From: Sulfurimonas sediminis | GTDB lineage: Bacteria > Campylobacterota > Campylobacteria > Campylobacterales > Sulfurimonadaceae | Direction of reading: 5' to 3' | Assembly: GCF_014905115.1 (NCBI RefSeq) | Contig: NZ_CP041235.1 | Coordinates: forward strand, 434,001-498,000 | DNA length: 64,000 nt | Shown: one piece after another, positions 15,109 to 22,960 of the stretch | Numbering within the stretch: the first letter of the stretch is position 1 | Layout of the letters: every line of letters starts with the position of its first letter | Notes under the pieces: generated by a model | Database searches by the model: none | The model's input: only the letters and a program-made list of their open reading frames with translations | Told to the model about the DNA's origin: nothing | Translations under genes and position numbers: made by a program

Positions 15109-15498
15109 ATGCAGGATTATCTTATTGTCTTTCTTGTGCTGTATATGCTTCTGGAATTTTATGAAGTGCAGTGGCAGAAGGCTGGGACACTTATGGATAT
15201 GCTGGCACGTATGTACCGCTATTATCATAAAAATGTTCTTCTTTTTCTGATTATGCACCCGACCTTTTATTTTGCTGTCTGGTTTTTGTTTTATACCCAC
15301 TATAATCCCTATGCTTTGGCATTACTCTCTTTTAAAACTGCTGATATTGTAAGTAAAATTATTATGATTGATCAGGTTTTTATAAAAAAAGAGATATCAA
15401 AAGAGTTTGCCCAGGTATTGCTTACTCCCATAGGACCGTATCTGCCGTATGCAGGGCTTTTGCTTTATCCGTTTTTTATATATATGGCCTCAGTGTGA
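15109..15498 (+). CDS. small integral membrane protein, unknown function
   Basis: 129 aa from the ATG at 15109; a TTG one codon earlier is a less likely start. At least three hydrophobic segments are visible (DYLIVFLVLYMLLEF, NVLLFLIMHPTFYFAVWFLFYTHY, YAGLLLYPFFIYMASV). A lysine-rich cytoplasmic-type loop (QVFIKKEISKEF) lies between. Its stop overlaps the GTG start of the epimerase gene, so the two were one transcript before the insertion sequence arrived. No recognised family. Confidence 0.7.
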   Translation: MQDYLIVFLVLYMLLEFYEVQWQKAGTLMDMLARMYRYYHKNVLLFLIMHPTFYFAVWFLFYTHYNPYALALLSFKTADIVSKIIMIDQVFIKKEISKEFAQVLLTPIGPYLPYAGLLLYPFFIYMASV

Positions 15499-16247
15499 AA
15501 ATACAGAAGATAGAGACACAGACAAAGAAAAGAGCACTGAAAACGCCGTTTGTCACAGCACTCAGACGGGTAGAAAATGTGCTGTTTATCCGTGTGAAGA
15601 TTACATGTAACCAAGGTTTTTATGCTTATGGCGAAGCACCTGCCACAAAAGCAGTGACAGGGGAAGATTTGCAAAGCATTGCAAATGCGATTGGCGGGTT
15701 GAAAGATGCCTTGCTTGGTCTTGCACCGGGTGAGGCTTTACATGTAATCCATGGCAGTGCAATGGGTTCGAGTGCAAAAGCCGCTCTTGATATGGCCGTT
15801 GTCTCTTTGCTGGCACAACAGAATAATCAGACACTGTTAGAGTATCTCGGCACAAAAGATTTTTCTCCGGTTTTTACCGATATTACTGTCAGTCTCAATA
15901 ATGCAGAGAGAATGCTTGCAGATGCGAAAAAAGCTTTTGACAACGGATTTCATATTTTAAAAGTAAAGCTTGGCAGTGACATAAACCATGCTGTTGCAGT
16001 TACAAAAATGATTTGTGAGACGCTTGTGGATGCAGAGGTGCTCATAGATGCCAACCAGGCGTGGAGTCTTGAACAGTCATTATACTATGCTGAGACCGTA
16101 GAGGGATTACATGTAAGCCTGATTGAACAGCCTGTAGTTGCAGATGATTTACAGAGCCTGAAAATAATAACCCAAAAAAGCACTGTTCCTATTCTTGCGG
16201 ATGAAGCTGTTTTTACACTTGAGGATGTCAAAAGAGTGTATGAAGAG

Positions 16248-17556
16248 TAGGTAAATCCCACGAAAAATAAAATAAATCTTAATCAATAGATTCAAAAGAA
16301 CTGGAAGAAATATTGCTTAGACTCCTAAAACAAGGAGTTTACCATCAAATTAACACGCACAAAAGCCTTACTTGAATCGCTAAAAAGTATCCCAGACTAT
16401 AGAGTAGATACAGGGAAGATAGAATATCCATTGCACGAAGTTCTTTTCATGACACTTTTTGCACTTATCAAAGGAAATACAACTTTTAAGGATATATTTT
16501 CATGGATGATATATAACAAAGACAATGCAATACTCAAAGAGATTTTTGATAAAGAAGAGATAACGATTCCTTCCAAATCAACATATCATCGTTTATTGAT
16601 AAACACAGATAATAATGCTTTGGAAAAAGTATTTAGAGAGTTCTTTTTTCCATTCATTGCACAAGAAAATATTGCTATTGACGGGAAGTGGCTGAGAGGT
16701 AGCGACGTGAATGGTCAATACACACAGGAAAGACATAAAGCAATACTAAATATCTTGGATAAAGATATAAAAATAGTGTTTGCTCACAAGTTTTTAGATA
16801 AAAATAAGAGTAGCGAAATTACTGCACTCAAAGAGGTTTTAAACGATAATATTTTTAGCAATGAAGGACAGATATTTTCCTTTGATGCACTGCTTACTCA
16901 ATCAGAGATTCTCAACACTATTGATGAGCAAGGTAACAGATATATAGCAAAACTCAAAGATAACCAGAAACACCTCAAAGAGAAAGCTATAAAGACCATA
17001 GAAGAGTTTAATCAGCCTACAGATAGAGTTGATGATGAAGATAGCTATTTAACTGAAAACAACAAAAGAGTCTCTCGAAAAGTAGAAGTTTTTCAAAATA
17101 AAAGTGCTGATTTAGTTATGTATCATGAGAACTTTCAAAATATTCAATCACTCATTAAAGTGACGAAAACATTAACAAATGCACAGACTGGTGAAGTTAC
17201 AATTTCAACTCAATATTTAATGGCTAACTTTAAAACAACTGCAAAAGAGTTTCTTCAAAAGATACTGCAACATTGGAGAGTGGAAACATATCACTATCAC
17301 TTAGATATGCTTACTGAAGAAGATGACCATATAGCATATAAAGAGCCTTTCTCTATAGCTATTCTTAGAAGTTTTACTGTTAATCTTTATCAGTTGTTTT
17401 TAAATGAGAACAAAGATAAAAAGGTACTCCTAACCGGTAAAACTACAATGGCAGATATTAAAAGAAATGCTCTTTATCGTGATGATTTTAGTGTTCAATT
17501 GATTGAATCAAACTATATTGATTAAGATTTGTTTTATTTTTCGTGGGATTTACCTA
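16248..17556 (+). mobile_element. ISAs1-family insertion sequence (1309 bp)
   Basis: Complete element with terminal inverted repeats beginning TAGGTAAATCCCACG at both ends. The match is 25 bp without mismatch and about 40 bp allowing one. The flanking 10-bp duplication GTATGAAGAG lies at 16238-16247 and 17557-17566. Length, duplication size and the single transposase fit the ISAs1 family. It interrupts the dipeptide epimerase gene in the same orientation. The right repeat reaches into the end of the transposase gene. The element contains none of the TACATGTA sites common in the surrounding DNA. Confidence 0.95.
16344..17525 (+). CDS. ISAs1-family DDE transposase
   Basis: Transposase of the ISAs1/H-repeat type. 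DDE blocks are visible: IAIDGKWLRG, FDALLTQSEIL (where relatives have TDAMGCQ), and HWRVETYHYHLDMLTEEDDH. The conventional first start is TTG at 16431. Upstream the frame stays open to 16329 and encodes LTRTKALLESLKSIPDYR, which aligns with the usual N-terminus of the family. An AAGGAG site (16333-16338) lies just before ATC at 16344, the place where ATG is expected, giving 393 aa. Either ATC serves as start or the copy is crippled. Confidence 0.88.
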   Translation: MKLTRTKALLESLKSIPDYRVDTGKIEYPLHEVLFMTLFALIKGNTTFKDIFSWMIYNKDNAILKEIFDKEEITIPSKSTYHRLLINTDNNALEKVFREFFFPFIAQENIAIDGKWLRGSDVNGQYTQERHKAILNILDKDIKIVFAHKFLDKNKSSEITALKEVLNDNIFSNEGQIFSFDALLTQSEILNTIDEQGNRYIAKLKDNQKHLKEKAIKTIEEFNQPTDRVDDEDSYLTENNKRVSRKVEVFQNKSADLVMYHENFQNIQSLIKVTKTLTNAQTGEVTISTQYLMANFKTTAKEFLQKILQHWRVETYHYHLDMLTEEDDHIAYKEPFSIAILRSFTVNLYQLFLNENKDKKVLLTGKTTMADIKRNALYRDDFSVQLIESNYID

Positions 17557-17862
17557 GTATGAAGAGGGCTGTGCCGATATGATAAATGTCAAACTGATGA
17601 AATGCGGCGGTGTGAGCAGGGCACAGGCAATTTTTGAATATGCCAGAGCCAACAACATAGAGTGTATGCTGGGTTCTATGCTGGAGGGTCCCGTCTCCAT
17701 ACATGCGGCGCTCTGTCTTGCTTTTGCATACAGAGATGTTGTAAAGTATATAGATTTGGACTCTCCTTTGCTGTATAAAAAGGCGCCGAGGGTTTTGGGA
17801 GAATTTGGTATAATACATGACAAAATACAGATTTTGTAGGTGAATATAATAAAGGTTGAGAA

Positions 17863-19314: not shown

Positions 19315-19320
19315 TATAAT
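19315..19320 (+). promoter_or_regulatory. extended -10 box 6 nt before the ATG at 19327
   Basis: TGTGTATAAT ends six bases before the start codon, which puts the expected transcription start at or next to the ATG. No ribosome-binding site precedes that ATG, so the message may be leaderless. Confidence 0.45.
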
Positions 19321-19326
19321 TTGTGT

Positions 19327-20571
19327 ATGAATTTACAGGATTTAAAAAACAGGACAATATTGTTGCTTGGAAAGAGCAGGGCTTTTAGTGCAGATGAGTT
19401 TGTGTCACAGCTGAAGTTTCACAGCATTGCTCTGTGCAAAGAAGTTACGGATGCGGTTACACTTGTCGTTGAGGGGCGCATGATGAGCCCTTATGAACAA
19501 AATCTGAGTGATACCCTTTATGAGGAAGAAAAATATGAGTTTATGGCTATAGATTTGTTTGAAAAACTTTTGGCACAAGAGATTGACAGCGATACACTGC
19601 TTATGAGTCTCAAACTCTCCAATGACAAAAAAAGATTAAAAAGTTTTTTGCAAAACAGCTGTATAGAAGATGCGCTTTTCTTTAAACTTTTAAAAATGTA
19701 CTCTTTTGGCGGTGAAGATTTTTTCGAAAATGATGACAATCGTGATGTCTCTGCTGCCTTAATAGCAAGATTTTATGAAAATATAGAACGAAACCACAAT
19801 GTGCAGTATGCAACAACGGGAATTTATCATCTGATAACGCAGACAAAAAACGAACAGCTTCTAGAAGCCATCGCTTTTTTGGAGCCGAGCAAAAAACATC
19901 CAAAAATTATAAAAGCACTTGCCTTGCATGAAAAAACACCAAAAAATGTGCTAAAAATGTTTTTAAAAAAAGGGGATGAAAGAGCAAAAGAAGCAATGGC
20001 ATATAATGTTAATCTTGAGAAAAATATAGCCCGTGAGTTGATAAAAAATAAAAAATTTGCCGAGATCGCAGCACAGAATATCAGGTTAGATGAGGAGATG
20101 TTCTCACTTTTGTCTGAGTGTAAATATGCTTTGGCGACAAATGAGACACTCAATAAAGCTATGCAGCAGGAGCTTGTTACATGTAACGATGAAAGGATTC
20201 ATCTTGCTTTGGCTGCAAACAGACGTTTACATGTAACGATATGCAAACAGCTGCTTTGTCTTAATAACGAGAAAATCAGAGAAGTAATTTATGCCAACAG
20301 TGCAACGCCGAGAGATATCCTGGAGTCTGCCTATAAAGAGGGAAACTACAATGAGCCGTTGAGTCGCAACAATGCGACACCACAAAATATTTTAGAAGAA
20401 CTTTTGAAATGCGGGGATGCGCAGATACTTTTAAATTTGGCAAAAAATGAAAATACTCCGATAGATATTTTATATCAACTGCAACTTGAGAGCCGTTTTG
20501 AGTGGGCAGTCAAAACAAACAAAGCCTTTGCAAAACATATACAAAATGAAAATATAGGATGGTTAGTATGA
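19327..20571 (+). CDS. BRCT-like + helical-repeat protein of MoxR/VWA module
   Basis: 414 aa from the ATG at 19327 (MNLQDLKNRTILLLG); a TTG at 19303 would add eight residues but overlaps the -10 box. Residues 1-75 look like a BRCT domain. Residues 130-410 are short helical repeats with recurring NxxxP/TPxxILxxL and LALAxNxxL units, like leucine-rich-repeat-variant or HEAT-type solenoids. No enzymatic motif. The stop overlaps the MoxR ATPase start (ATGA), so the two are coupled. It may be the substrate or adaptor subunit of the AAA/VWA system; I do not know a characterised homologue. Confidence 0.78.
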   Translation: MNLQDLKNRTILLLGKSRAFSADEFVSQLKFHSIALCKEVTDAVTLVVEGRMMSPYEQNLSDTLYEEEKYEFMAIDLFEKLLAQEIDSDTLLMSLKLSNDKKRLKSFLQNSCIEDALFFKLLKMYSFGGEDFFENDDNRDVSAALIARFYENIERNHNVQYATTGIYHLITQTKNEQLLEAIAFLEPSKKHPKIIKALALHEKTPKNVLKMFLKKGDERAKEAMAYNVNLEKNIARELIKNKKFAEIAAQNIRLDEEMFSLLSECKYALATNETLNKAMQQELVTCNDERIHLALAANRRLHVTICKQLLCLNNEKIREVIYANSATPRDILESAYKEGNYNEPLSRNNATPQNILEELLKCGDAQILLNLAKNENTPIDILYQLQLESRFEWAVKTNKAFAKHIQNENIGWLV

Positions 20572-21563
20572 GAGCAGGAGAATTGAGACAGGCTTTGGAG
20601 GCACTGGTCTTGCAAAAAGTGCCTACATTTGTGTGGGGAGCACCGGGAATCGGAAAGTCTTCGATTGTCAAACAGATTGCACAGAAAAACAACCTTGGTT
20701 TTATTGATTTGCGTTTGGCTTTGATGGACCCGACAGATTTAAAAGGCATACCTTTTTATGACAAAGAGTCACACACCGCACTTTGGGCACCGCCTGCTTT
20801 TTTGCCGAGTGAAGGTCAGGGGATTTTGTTTTTGGATGAGCTTAATTCTGCAGCGCCTGCCGTACAGTCTTCTGCCTATCAGCTGATACTTGACCGGCGT
20901 GTGGGAGAGTATGAACTGCCTGAGGGTTGGGCTATTGTGGCGGCAGGAAACCGTGAGGGTGACAGAGGGGTGACCTACCGAATGCCGGCTCCTTTGGCAA
21001 ATCGTTTTGTGCATTTTGAACTGGAAGTAAGTGTGGATGATTGGCGTGACTGGGCGTACAAATCCGGGCTTGAGAGTCGCATAATTGCCTATATAAGTTA
21101 TAAGAATGAGCATTTGTTTACCTTTGATGCCAAAAAGGAGCATAAAAGTTTTGCAACGCCCAGAAGCTGGGAATATGTCGGAAGTATTTTACAAAGTGCT
21201 CTGCCTGCATCTGTACTTTTGGAAACAGTGAGCGGTGCGGTAGGGCGTGATGTCGGTGTTTCATTTTTGAGCTTTTTAAAAGTAATGGACAGGCTGCCTG
21301 ATATAGAGAAGATACTCAGCGGAGAGGAGTTCGTCTACAGCGAGGAAGTGGATGTTTTATATGCTTTGAGTTCGGGCATTGTCAGTCACTATCTGCAAAA
21401 TCCGAGTCAAGAGAGACTTGAAAACCTGCTTAAGTATACCCTTGGACTCAAAGGGGAATTTGCCGTGATGATAGCACAGGATCTGCAAAGAGCAGGTGTC
21501 ACGATGGAAGGTTCAAGTGTTTTTAAAGAGTGGGTAAGAAAGTTTTCTTATCTTTTAGACTGA
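20568..21563 (+). CDS. MoxR-family AAA+ ATPase
   Basis: 331 aa from the ATG at 20568, which overlaps the previous stop; an ATG three codons upstream is less likely. Walker A is GAPGIGKSS, Walker B is GILFLDELNSA, sensor 1 is AAGNREGD, and the arginine-containing PLANRFVHFEL segment follows. MoxR ATPases remodel or insert metals into partner complexes together with VWA-domain proteins, as in RavA-ViaA. Here a VWA protein follows after a 270-bp gap full of repeats, and a BRCT-like repeat protein precedes. Confidence 0.9.
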   Translation: MRAGELRQALEALVLQKVPTFVWGAPGIGKSSIVKQIAQKNNLGFIDLRLALMDPTDLKGIPFYDKESHTALWAPPAFLPSEGQGILFLDELNSAAPAVQSSAYQLILDRRVGEYELPEGWAIVAAGNREGDRGVTYRMPAPLANRFVHFELEVSVDDWRDWAYKSGLESRIIAYISYKNEHLFTFDAKKEHKSFATPRSWEYVGSILQSALPASVLLETVSGAVGRDVGVSFLSFLKVMDRLPDIEKILSGEEFVYSEEVDVLYALSSGIVSHYLQNPSQERLENLLKYTLGLKGEFAVMIAQDLQRAGVTMEGSSVFKEWVRKFSYLLD

Positions 21564-21606
21564 GCGCGGTAAACAGGCTTAAAGAGTCGGCAAGAAAGTT
21601 CGAAGA

Positions 21607-21673
21607 GTCGGCACTGCAGAAAAAAATTTAGTTTTTTTCTAAGTCATGCTTTAGCATAGAAAGTACCGATTCC
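21607..21673. repeat. hairpin repeat, family R, copy 2
   Basis: Nearly identical to 14983-15051: GTCGGCACTGCAG, an A7 to T7 stretch, a hairpin ATGCT-TT-AGCAT (21646-21657), then GAAAGTACCGATTCC. Compared with copy 1 (ACGCT-TT-AGCGT) both sides of one stem pair have changed, C-G to T-A, keeping the hairpin. Confidence 0.75.
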
Positions 21674-21715
21674 TGGAGGATGCATAGAGTCTTTTCGGAA
21701 CCCATCCTTTAGTGT

Positions 21716-21817
21716 CAATGCCGTTAAGTTAAACATTTTTTTGGAACCCGTACTTCAGTGCGGGCGAGAGTGGCGAGAAAGTTTAAACAGTCGGCACTAA
21801 AATACCGATTCCGAAAA
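21716..21817. repeat. composite inverted-repeat element, family R, copy 3
   Basis: It begins CAATGCCGTTAAGTTAAAC, close to the terminal repeat of the IS4 element at 61348 (CAACGCCATTAAGTTAAGC). It continues TTTTTTTGGAACCCGTACTTCAG and a GAGAGTGGC loop, and ends GTCGGCACTAAAATACCGATTCCG as in the other copies. It seems to carry an IS-type end on one side only, so it may be a fusion or truncated copy. It lies in front of the VWA gene. Confidence 0.65.
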
Positions 21818-21835
21818 TAGGAGTGAAGGAAAAAT

Positions 21836-22960
21836 ATGCAAAAAACAGAAGAAAAAATTTCACAAGCAAAAGCAAAACTTTTACTGGAGTATCCCTATTT
21901 CGGGACCCTTGCCTCTAAAATTGATGTTATTATAAATGATGATATTGAAGCCTTTAAAAGTGACGGCAAAAAGCTTGAAATCAACAGCGACTACCTGCAA
22001 AATTTAGAACTCTCTGAGATGGAATTTGTCTTTGCCAACGGGGCAATGCACGCAAGTCTTGCTCATGAGATGCGAAAAAAGAACCGGAGCGGCTGGCTGT
22101 GGCAGATGGCTACAGATATGGCAGTTAATGACATGCTTGTGCAAAACGGCCTTGATATGCCTTATGGAGCGCAGTACAGAGAACGTTTCAGCGGGATGTA
22201 TGCCGAAGCAATTTATGCCGAATTAAAAGATGATATCCTGCGAAATGATGAAGATTTGGAATATGAAGCCGATGAGAGTGATGATGTACAAAGTGACAAC
22301 CAGGAACAAACACCCCAAGAGTTAGAAGAAGAAATTTTACAAGAGCAGCTTTTTGCCGAGGAAGCCATTGCTCTTTTGGAATCCAAAATGCACAAAGGCG
22401 AAGCACCGGTGACGATTGAGCGTTTTTTTCAACTGAATGACTTTGGAAAAATTGACTGGCGAAATGAACTGCGGATGGCACTTGATCCTTATTTTCGGGA
22501 TGATTATGTCGTGATGCCACCTTCTAAAAAATTGCTTTACAGCGGTATTTACCTGCCTTGCAATATTTCTCAGACCTTTCGTCTTGTGATTGCAGTGGAC
22601 AGTTCCGGCTCCATTGATGAAGTGCTTTTAAATGAATTTTTGAGTGAAGTAAATTTTTTGATGACTTTGGTGCAAAATTATCAGATTGAACTGCTTGTAT
22701 GTGATGAAAAAATTCAATCACATAGTACTTTTTACAGTGGAGAAAGATTGGAAGTAAACATTAAAGGCGGAGGGGCAACAGACTTTCGTCCTGTTTTTCA
22801 TTTTACAGAAGAAAACTTTGATGATTTGAAACTGCTTTTGTATTTTACAGACCTGGATGGAACTTTTCCAAAATATGTACCGGATTATAAGGTGAAATGG
22901 ATAAGTTCCAAGGAAAAGAAACTTCCGTTTGGAACACTTATAAAACTAGATCAGGCTTGA
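21836..22960 (+). CDS. DUF2201 metallopeptidase-like / VWA-like domain protein
   Basis: 374 aa. The N-terminal half matches the putative metallopeptidase domain found before VWA-like domains: MHASLAHEMRKKNRSGWLWQMATDMAVNDML has a His/Glu-type helix, though HEMRKK is not a full HExxH. A central acidic region (residues 135-170) follows. The C-terminal part has a MIDAS-like VIAVDSSGSID and KGGGATDFRPVF, then a late LLYFTDLDG. It is the expected partner of the MoxR ATPase upstream. The last ten bases overlap the convergent gene 22951-24216. Confidence 0.85.
   Translation: MQKTEEKISQAKAKLLLEYPYFGTLASKIDVIINDDIEAFKSDGKKLEINSDYLQNLELSEMEFVFANGAMHASLAHEMRKKNRSGWLWQMATDMAVNDMLVQNGLDMPYGAQYRERFSGMYAEAIYAELKDDILRNDEDLEYEADESDDVQSDNQEQTPQELEEEILQEQLFAEEAIALLESKMHKGEAPVTIERFFQLNDFGKIDWRNELRMALDPYFRDDYVVMPPSKKLLYSGIYLPCNISQTFRLVIAVDSSGSIDEVLLNEFLSEVNFLMTLVQNYQIELLVCDEKIQSHSTFYSGERLEVNIKGGGATDFRPVFHFTEENFDDLKLLLYFTDLDGTFPKYVPDYKVKWISSKEKKLPFGTLIKLDQA

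What the first reader, a model, noticed from the sequence alone, without database searches (positions are those of the whole stretch)
19315..22960. BRCT-like repeat protein + MoxR + VWA module of unknown purpose
A BRCT-like domain fused to helical repeats, translationally coupled to a MoxR ATPase and followed by a metallopeptidase-like/VWA protein, is not one of the described MoxR systems I know (RavA-ViaA, NorQD, CbbQO). BRCT domains usually bind phosphorylated proteins or DNA ends. A DNA-repair or stress-remodelling role is possible.
Basis: inference. Interest (0 to 1): 0.6.

Follow-up and report, generated by a model that had tools for sequence, protein, structure and literature searches.

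The report
BRCT-repeat protein joined to MoxR–VWA chaperone
Three linked genes, conserved across Sulfurimonas and some related bacteria, encode an ATP-driven protein-remodelling machine (MoxR plus a VWA partner) with an unusual third part, a BRCT domain fused to curved helical repeats, that probably tells the machine which still unknown target to work on.

Summary
Window 19327-22960 encodes a BRCT–LRV protein (414 aa), a MoxR AAA+ ATPase and a DUF2201 VWA protein. AlphaFold2 (mean pLDDT 92.6) gives residues 1-86 a BRCT topology. Top structural matches are BRCT domains, bacterial DNA ligase first (Z 9.7-9.9, 2.1-2.2 Å). The rest is helical repeat; Pfam LRV_2 hits 30 of 51 homologues. Among 298 Campylobacterota genomes, 40 carry the BRCT–LRV protein. 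All 40 have this MoxR and 39 have DUF2201, including four where BRCT–LRV and MoxR are not adjacent. The BRCT–LRV and MoxR genes often overlap by 4 nt (ATGA).

The DNA-repair idea is weaker: the BRCT phosphate-binding Thr is Phe/Leu in 50 of 51 homologues. The VWA protein has an intact MIDAS but no HExxH motif. No other neighbour is constant.

Best reading: a MoxR/VWA chaperone with a BRCT–LRV client adaptor; client unknown. Paralogous MoxR–DUF2201 pairs lacking BRCT–LRV occur only in genomes with nifD, many about 11-32 kb from nif genes. That suggests enzyme maturation for the wider clade, but this module also occurs without nif. I call it a new variant of a known kind.

The parts
19327..19584 (+). 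BRCT domain of the adaptor protein (residues 1-86)
   Evidence: AF2 topology b1-a1-b2-b3-a2-b4-a3. Domain-only model: PDB matches are nearly all BRCT, best LigA Z 9.7, 2.1 A, 77 aa; RFC1 Z 7-8; Foldseek E 1.4e-4.
19585..19836 (+). Most conserved helical segment (residues 87-170, ...EDFFENDDNRDV...RFYENIERNHNVQYA), candidate docking surface
   Evidence: Lowest mean column entropy of the protein (1.18, against 1.86 for BRCT and 2.3 for the middle repeats). Y125, R139 and R148 invariant in 51 homologues.
19837..20550 (+). LRV/HEAT-like helical repeats (about residues 171-408)
   Evidence: Helical repeats in the AF2 model; LRV_2 in 30/51 and LRV in 12/51 homologues; 1lrv Z 8.8 but rmsd 10.9 A.
20568..21563 (+). 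MoxR AAA+ ATPase (ORF from 20559; conserved start 20568, ATGA overlap with the BRCT gene)
   Evidence: AAA_3 E=5.5e-8. Walker A/B, sensor-1 Asn, Arg finger and TPRSW invariant or nearly so in 81 sequences. 4-nt overlap in 35 loci.
21566..21830 (+). Dispersed palindrome-rich repeat lying between moxR and the VWA gene; not part of the machine
   Evidence: 75 matches in the genome; fold z = -1.95.
21848..22558 (+). DUF2201_N domain of the VWA protein; HExxH zinc motif missing
   Evidence: Pfam E=3e-24; no row examined has HExxH, most BRCT-linked rows read NGAMH there.
22583..22951 (+). VWA-like domain with intact MIDAS (DxSxS...T...D)
   Evidence: Pfam DUF2201 E=1.6e-20; MIDAS residues conserved across rows examined.

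Best explanation
This is a three-part MoxR/VWA remodelling chaperone. MoxR would form an ATP-hydrolysing ring, and the DUF2201 protein would plug or cap it and grip a client through its MIDAS site. The BRCT-LRV protein, made together with MoxR, would be the client-selecting adaptor: its LRV superhelix and conserved helical segment bind client and/or MoxR, and its BRCT domain makes a protein-protein contact. ATP hydrolysis then remodels or matures a dedicated cellular complex. Shown here: the folds, intact catalytic motifs, co-occurrence and coupling. Inferred: ring formation, complex formation, adaptor role and remodelling. The client is unknown; enzyme maturation is more likely than DNA repair, and nitrogenase cannot be the general client.
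For: All 40 BRCT-LRV genomes also have this MoxR, and 39 have DUF2201; MoxR lies within 2.6 kb in 36. In four genomes BRCT-LRV and MoxR are apart yet both present. ATGA overlap is the commonest arrangement. ATPase motifs are invariant and the MIDAS is intact. MIDAS-dependent client contact is proposed from mutants of NorQD (PMC9976466), and MoxR/VWA action on dedicated complexes is described in PMC3893208 and PMC7159879. BRCT and helical repeats are known protein-binding folds (general knowledge). No other gene is constantly linked. BRCT-LRV-free paralogous pairs occur only in nifD genomes, 15 of 15, which suggests a maturation role for the wider clade.
Against: The VWA gene has drifted from the pair in many genomes (within 8 kb in about 26 of 40), so it could serve MoxR more loosely than assumed. 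The genomes are related, so the nominal co-occurrence p-value (1e-43) is inflated. No client was identified.
Confidence: 0.6

Rival explanations
1. Metalloenzyme maturation: the machine inserts or helps insert a metal cofactor into one respiratory or chemolithotrophic enzyme, as NorQD and CoxDE do, and BRCT-LRV is the docking factor for that enzyme. This is a more specific version of the best explanation.
For: The closest paralogous MoxR-DUF2201 pairs occur only in nifD genomes (15/15, P about 5e-14 ignoring relatedness), many about 11-32 kb from nifD or nifE-like genes. Described MoxR/VWA pairs often mature metalloenzymes.
Against: No cofactor or enzyme gene is constantly adjacent. 25 of the 40 BRCT-LRV genomes have no nifD, including this one. 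No client was found.
Confidence: 0.3
2. DNA repair or replication: the BRCT domain brings the MoxR/VWA motor to nicks, ligase or the replication machinery, where it remodels stalled complexes.
For: The best structural matches of the domain are DNA ligase LigA and clamp-loader RFC1 BRCT domains.
Against: Pocket Thr is Phe/Leu in 50 of 51 and the Arg-equivalent position is variable. The Pif1 helicase neighbour is not conserved beyond Sulfurimonas-type loci. Damage regulation was not examined.
Confidence: 0.12
3. Anti-phage or conflict system: a ternary MoxR-VWA switch like those with VMAP, iSTAND or FtsH third components, with BRCT-LRV as sensor.
For: Same logic of MoxR + VWA + third component (PMC7159879). 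Some relatives have nucleotidyltransferase/HEPN-like pairs inserted between moxR and the VWA gene.
Against: No effector domain and no PADLOC match. Stable locus across Sulfurimonas and a MoxR tree that broadly follows the genome families. No phage record match and only weak LRV-only plasmid matches.
Confidence: 0.06

Closest known systems
NorQ-NorD (MoxR AAA+/VWA) of Paracoccus denitrificans
   Same: MoxR ATPase plus VWA protein with MIDAS; likely client remodelling by an AAA+ ring.
   Different: VWA partner is of a different family (DUF2201 here); here a coupled BRCT-LRV third protein; client unknown; no nor genes constantly linked.
RavA-ViaA of E. coli
   Same: MoxR + VWA operon acting on dedicated complexes.
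   Different: No BRCT-LRV partner; VWA protein of another family. RavA-specific features were not tested here.
MoxR-vWA ternary conflict systems (VMAP, iSTAND, FtsH, beta-propeller)
   Same: MoxR + VWA + a third, system-defining protein.
   Different: Third protein is BRCT-LRV, no fused effectors; the window MoxR is below the cut-off of the bpMoxR model (14.4 vs 27 bits).
MoxR-DUF2201 pairs in nif regions of Campylobacterota (classes B and C here) and on Burkholderiales plasmids
   Same: Same two core genes; class B is nested among BRCT-associated MoxRs in the tree.
   Different: Lack the BRCT-LRV partner; Sphaerotilus has a different coupled upstream protein.
LigA/RFC1 single BRCT domains; LRV protein 1lrv
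   Same: Fold of residues 1-86 and of the repeats, respectively.
   Different: Phosphate-pocket residues absent; the two domains fused in one protein beside MoxR.

Membership tests
MoxR AAA+ ATPase | Walker A/B, sensor 1, Arg finger | tested here: met
   Invariant or near-invariant in 81 sequences; AAA_3 above cut-off.
MoxR AAA+ ATPase | Helix-2 insert and hexameric ring | not tested
   The conserved DLRLALMDPTDLKGIPFYDKES stretch was scored for conservation only; no MoxR model was made.
MoxR/VWA chaperone pair | Linked VWA protein with intact MIDAS | tested here: met
   DUF2201 VWA E=1.6e-20; MIDAS conserved; linked in most genomes.
MoxR/VWA chaperone pair | Physical complex and ATP-dependent client remodelling | not testable with these tools
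   Needs protein biochemistry.
BRCT domain | BRCT fold | tested here: met
   (predicted structure).
BRCT domain | Match to the Pfam BRCT sequence model | tested here: not met
   PF00533 is not among the families shown for 51 members or for the window member; own-genome search with PF00533 finds one place only, in a 653-aa frame that reads as LigA. Membership rests on fold.
Phosphate-binding BRCT | Thr/Ser-Gly and basic residues of the phosphate pocket | tested here: not met
   Gly15 invariant but Thr position is F/L in 50/51; LigA Arg position is variable residue 22. Sequence-level test only.
LRV repeat protein | LRV/LRV_2 repeats | tested here: met
   LRV_2 30/51 and LRV 12/51 homologues, though not the window member itself.
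Zincin metallopeptidase (DUF2201_N) | HExxH motif | tested here: not met
   NGAMH in its place.
bpMoxR ternary conflict system | MoxR scoring over the bpMoxR model cut-off | tested here: not met
   14.4 bits vs cut-off 27; 15.8 bits in the genome search.

The most novel reading that the evidence does not exclude
An undescribed class of MoxR/VWA machines in which a BRCT domain that no longer reads phosphate, mounted on an LRV solenoid, serves as the exchangeable client adaptor. The same MoxR-DUF2201 motor would have been re-used, without that adaptor, for nitrogenase-related maturation.
Probability: 0.3. Interest if true: 0.65.

Novelty: new variant of a known kind. Interest (0 to 1): 0.45.

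Why it matters
MoxR/VWA machines are among the least understood AAA+ systems, and how they choose clients is open. A conserved, translationally coupled adaptor with recognisable binding folds gives a testable handle on client choice, and the nif-associated sister pairs give a comparison in which the client class may be guessed.

Tried and rejected
Single-sequence Pfam, NCBIfam and PADLOC scans of the BRCT–LRV protein: nothing significant. Profile search of the PDB by sequence with the BRCT and full alignments: no BRCT or LRV hit, only chance-level matches. Pif1 helicase as part of the module: rejected (0 of 15 distant loci). Nitrogenase as the general client: rejected, because 25 of 40 module genomes lack nifD. 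BRCT–LRV on phages or plasmids: none, apart from weak LRV-only matches in Calothrix. Proteins beside MoxR–DUF2201 on Burkholderiales plasmids: no Pfam hit resembling BRCT or LRV. Papers holding MoxR with DUF2201 or with BRCT: none in the held library; subscription papers are mostly not covered. Search outside Campylobacterota was limited: the one genome-contig scan used patterns from the window protein and reaches close relatives only. Assignment to one of the seven published MoxR subfamilies (listed in PMC3893208) was not attempted.

Full report
What is there. The window lies in a complete 2.32-Mb genome whose relatives by this protein are Sulfurimonas and other Sulfurimonadaceae. Three same-strand genes follow one another: a 414-aa protein (19327-20571), a MoxR ATPase (20568-21563, ORF open from 20559) and a DUF2201 protein (21836-22960). 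The first two overlap by ATGA, the commonest arrangement among homologues (35 of 80 pairs). The gap before the third gene holds a dispersed repeat with 75 matches in this genome; in the close relative L003 the VWA match begins about 20 nt after MoxR.

Fold of the first protein. With a 51-sequence alignment AlphaFold2 gave mean pLDDT 92.6. Residues 1-86 have the order b1-a1-b2-b3-a2-b4-a3. Modelled alone (mean pLDDT 76.9) the domain's best matches are the LigA BRCT domain (itself in an integrative model; Z 9.7, 2.1 A over 77 residues) and solved RFC1, Rad4, XRCC1 and PARP4 BRCT domains at Z 7-8. Apart from one AmiR row, the top 50 Foldseek rows are BRCT-containing chains or the BRCT region of Dbf4. 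Sequence models do not see it, and the profile comparison with LigA is colinear but weak. The remainder is helical repeats; LRV_2 matches 30 of 51 homologues, and the LRV structure 1lrv is among the top structural rows (Z 8.8), though at 10.9 A rmsd. The most conserved stretch is neither BRCT nor the later repeats but residues 87-170.

Co-occurrence. In 298 Campylobacterota genomes I found the full-type protein in 40 (the other matches are LRV-only). All 40 have MoxR at E<=1e-40 and 39 have DUF2201. MoxR is within 2.6 kb in 36; in the other four (G047, G208, G234, G285) the two genes are apart but both present. Genomes with this MoxR but no BRCT–LRV carry only the paralogous classes or, in one case (G224), a fragment. 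Relatedness of the genomes inflates the formal p-value. A neighbourhood survey of 81 loci found no fourth constant gene.

Working parts. MoxR keeps its ATPase motifs. The VWA domain keeps its MIDAS, but the DUF2201_N domain lacks HExxH, so peptidase activity is not expected. The BRCT phosphate-pocket Thr is Phe/Leu in 50 of 51 and the Arg position is variable; this was judged from sequence, not from coordinates, and which residues form the pocket in LigA and RFC1 is from my own knowledge.

Paralogous pairs. Besides the BRCT-linked class there are two more MoxR–DUF2201 classes. Class C is a separate clade; class B is nested within the BRCT-linked MoxRs. All 15 sampled genomes with B or C have nifD (45 of 298 overall), and many of the pairs lie about 11-32 kb from nifD or nifE-like genes. 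A few (G122, G206, G056) are far away on the chromosome.

Mechanism. From established MoxR/VWA biology the most likely reading is a remodelling chaperone with BRCT–LRV as client adaptor. Ring, complex, adaptor role and client are inferred. DNA repair remains possible but is not favoured.

Comparison and novelty. It works like MoxR/VWA chaperones, and the two core genes belong to that kind. The BRCT–LRV third component was not found in any held paper with MoxR, and the library omits most subscription journals. I rate it a new variant of a known kind.

Noticed in passing
window 21566-21830: Short dispersed, palindrome-rich repeat with 75 matches in the genome, one copy sitting between moxR and the VWA gene.
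   Followed up: partly
L142 12288-14428 and 5755-7963; L143 6381-8518 and 11382-13590: Paralogous MoxR-DUF2201 pairs (classes B and C) without BRCT-LRV; all 15 genomes with them have nifD and many pairs lie about 11-32 kb from nif genes. Possible nitrogenase maturation factors.
   Followed up: partly
window 15495-17839: A DDE transposase gene (16431-17525, DDE_Tnp_1 with DDE_Tnp_1_assoc) appears to split an enolase-superfamily (dipeptide-epimerase-like) gene into 15495-16250 and 17579-17839.
   Followed up: partly
L002 1456-2025: Second LRV protein of the genome (189 aa, LRV E=1.4e-27), with no BRCT-LRV, MoxR or DUF2201 match in its 3.5-kb locus.
   Followed up: no
L053 7954-8950; L068 8165-9058; L062 7253-7902; L047 8345-12531: The interval between moxR and the VWA gene is a frequent insertion site: nucleotidyltransferase/HEPN-like pairs, a ferritin-like gene, a TerC-like gene and others, judged by eye from sequence.
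   Followed up: partly
L224 1931-6086 (Sphaerotilus plasmid): A MoxR-DUF2201 pair is preceded by a different coupled 592-aa protein with no Pfam match, apparently leucine-rich then helical; perhaps an alternative adaptor.
   Followed up: partly
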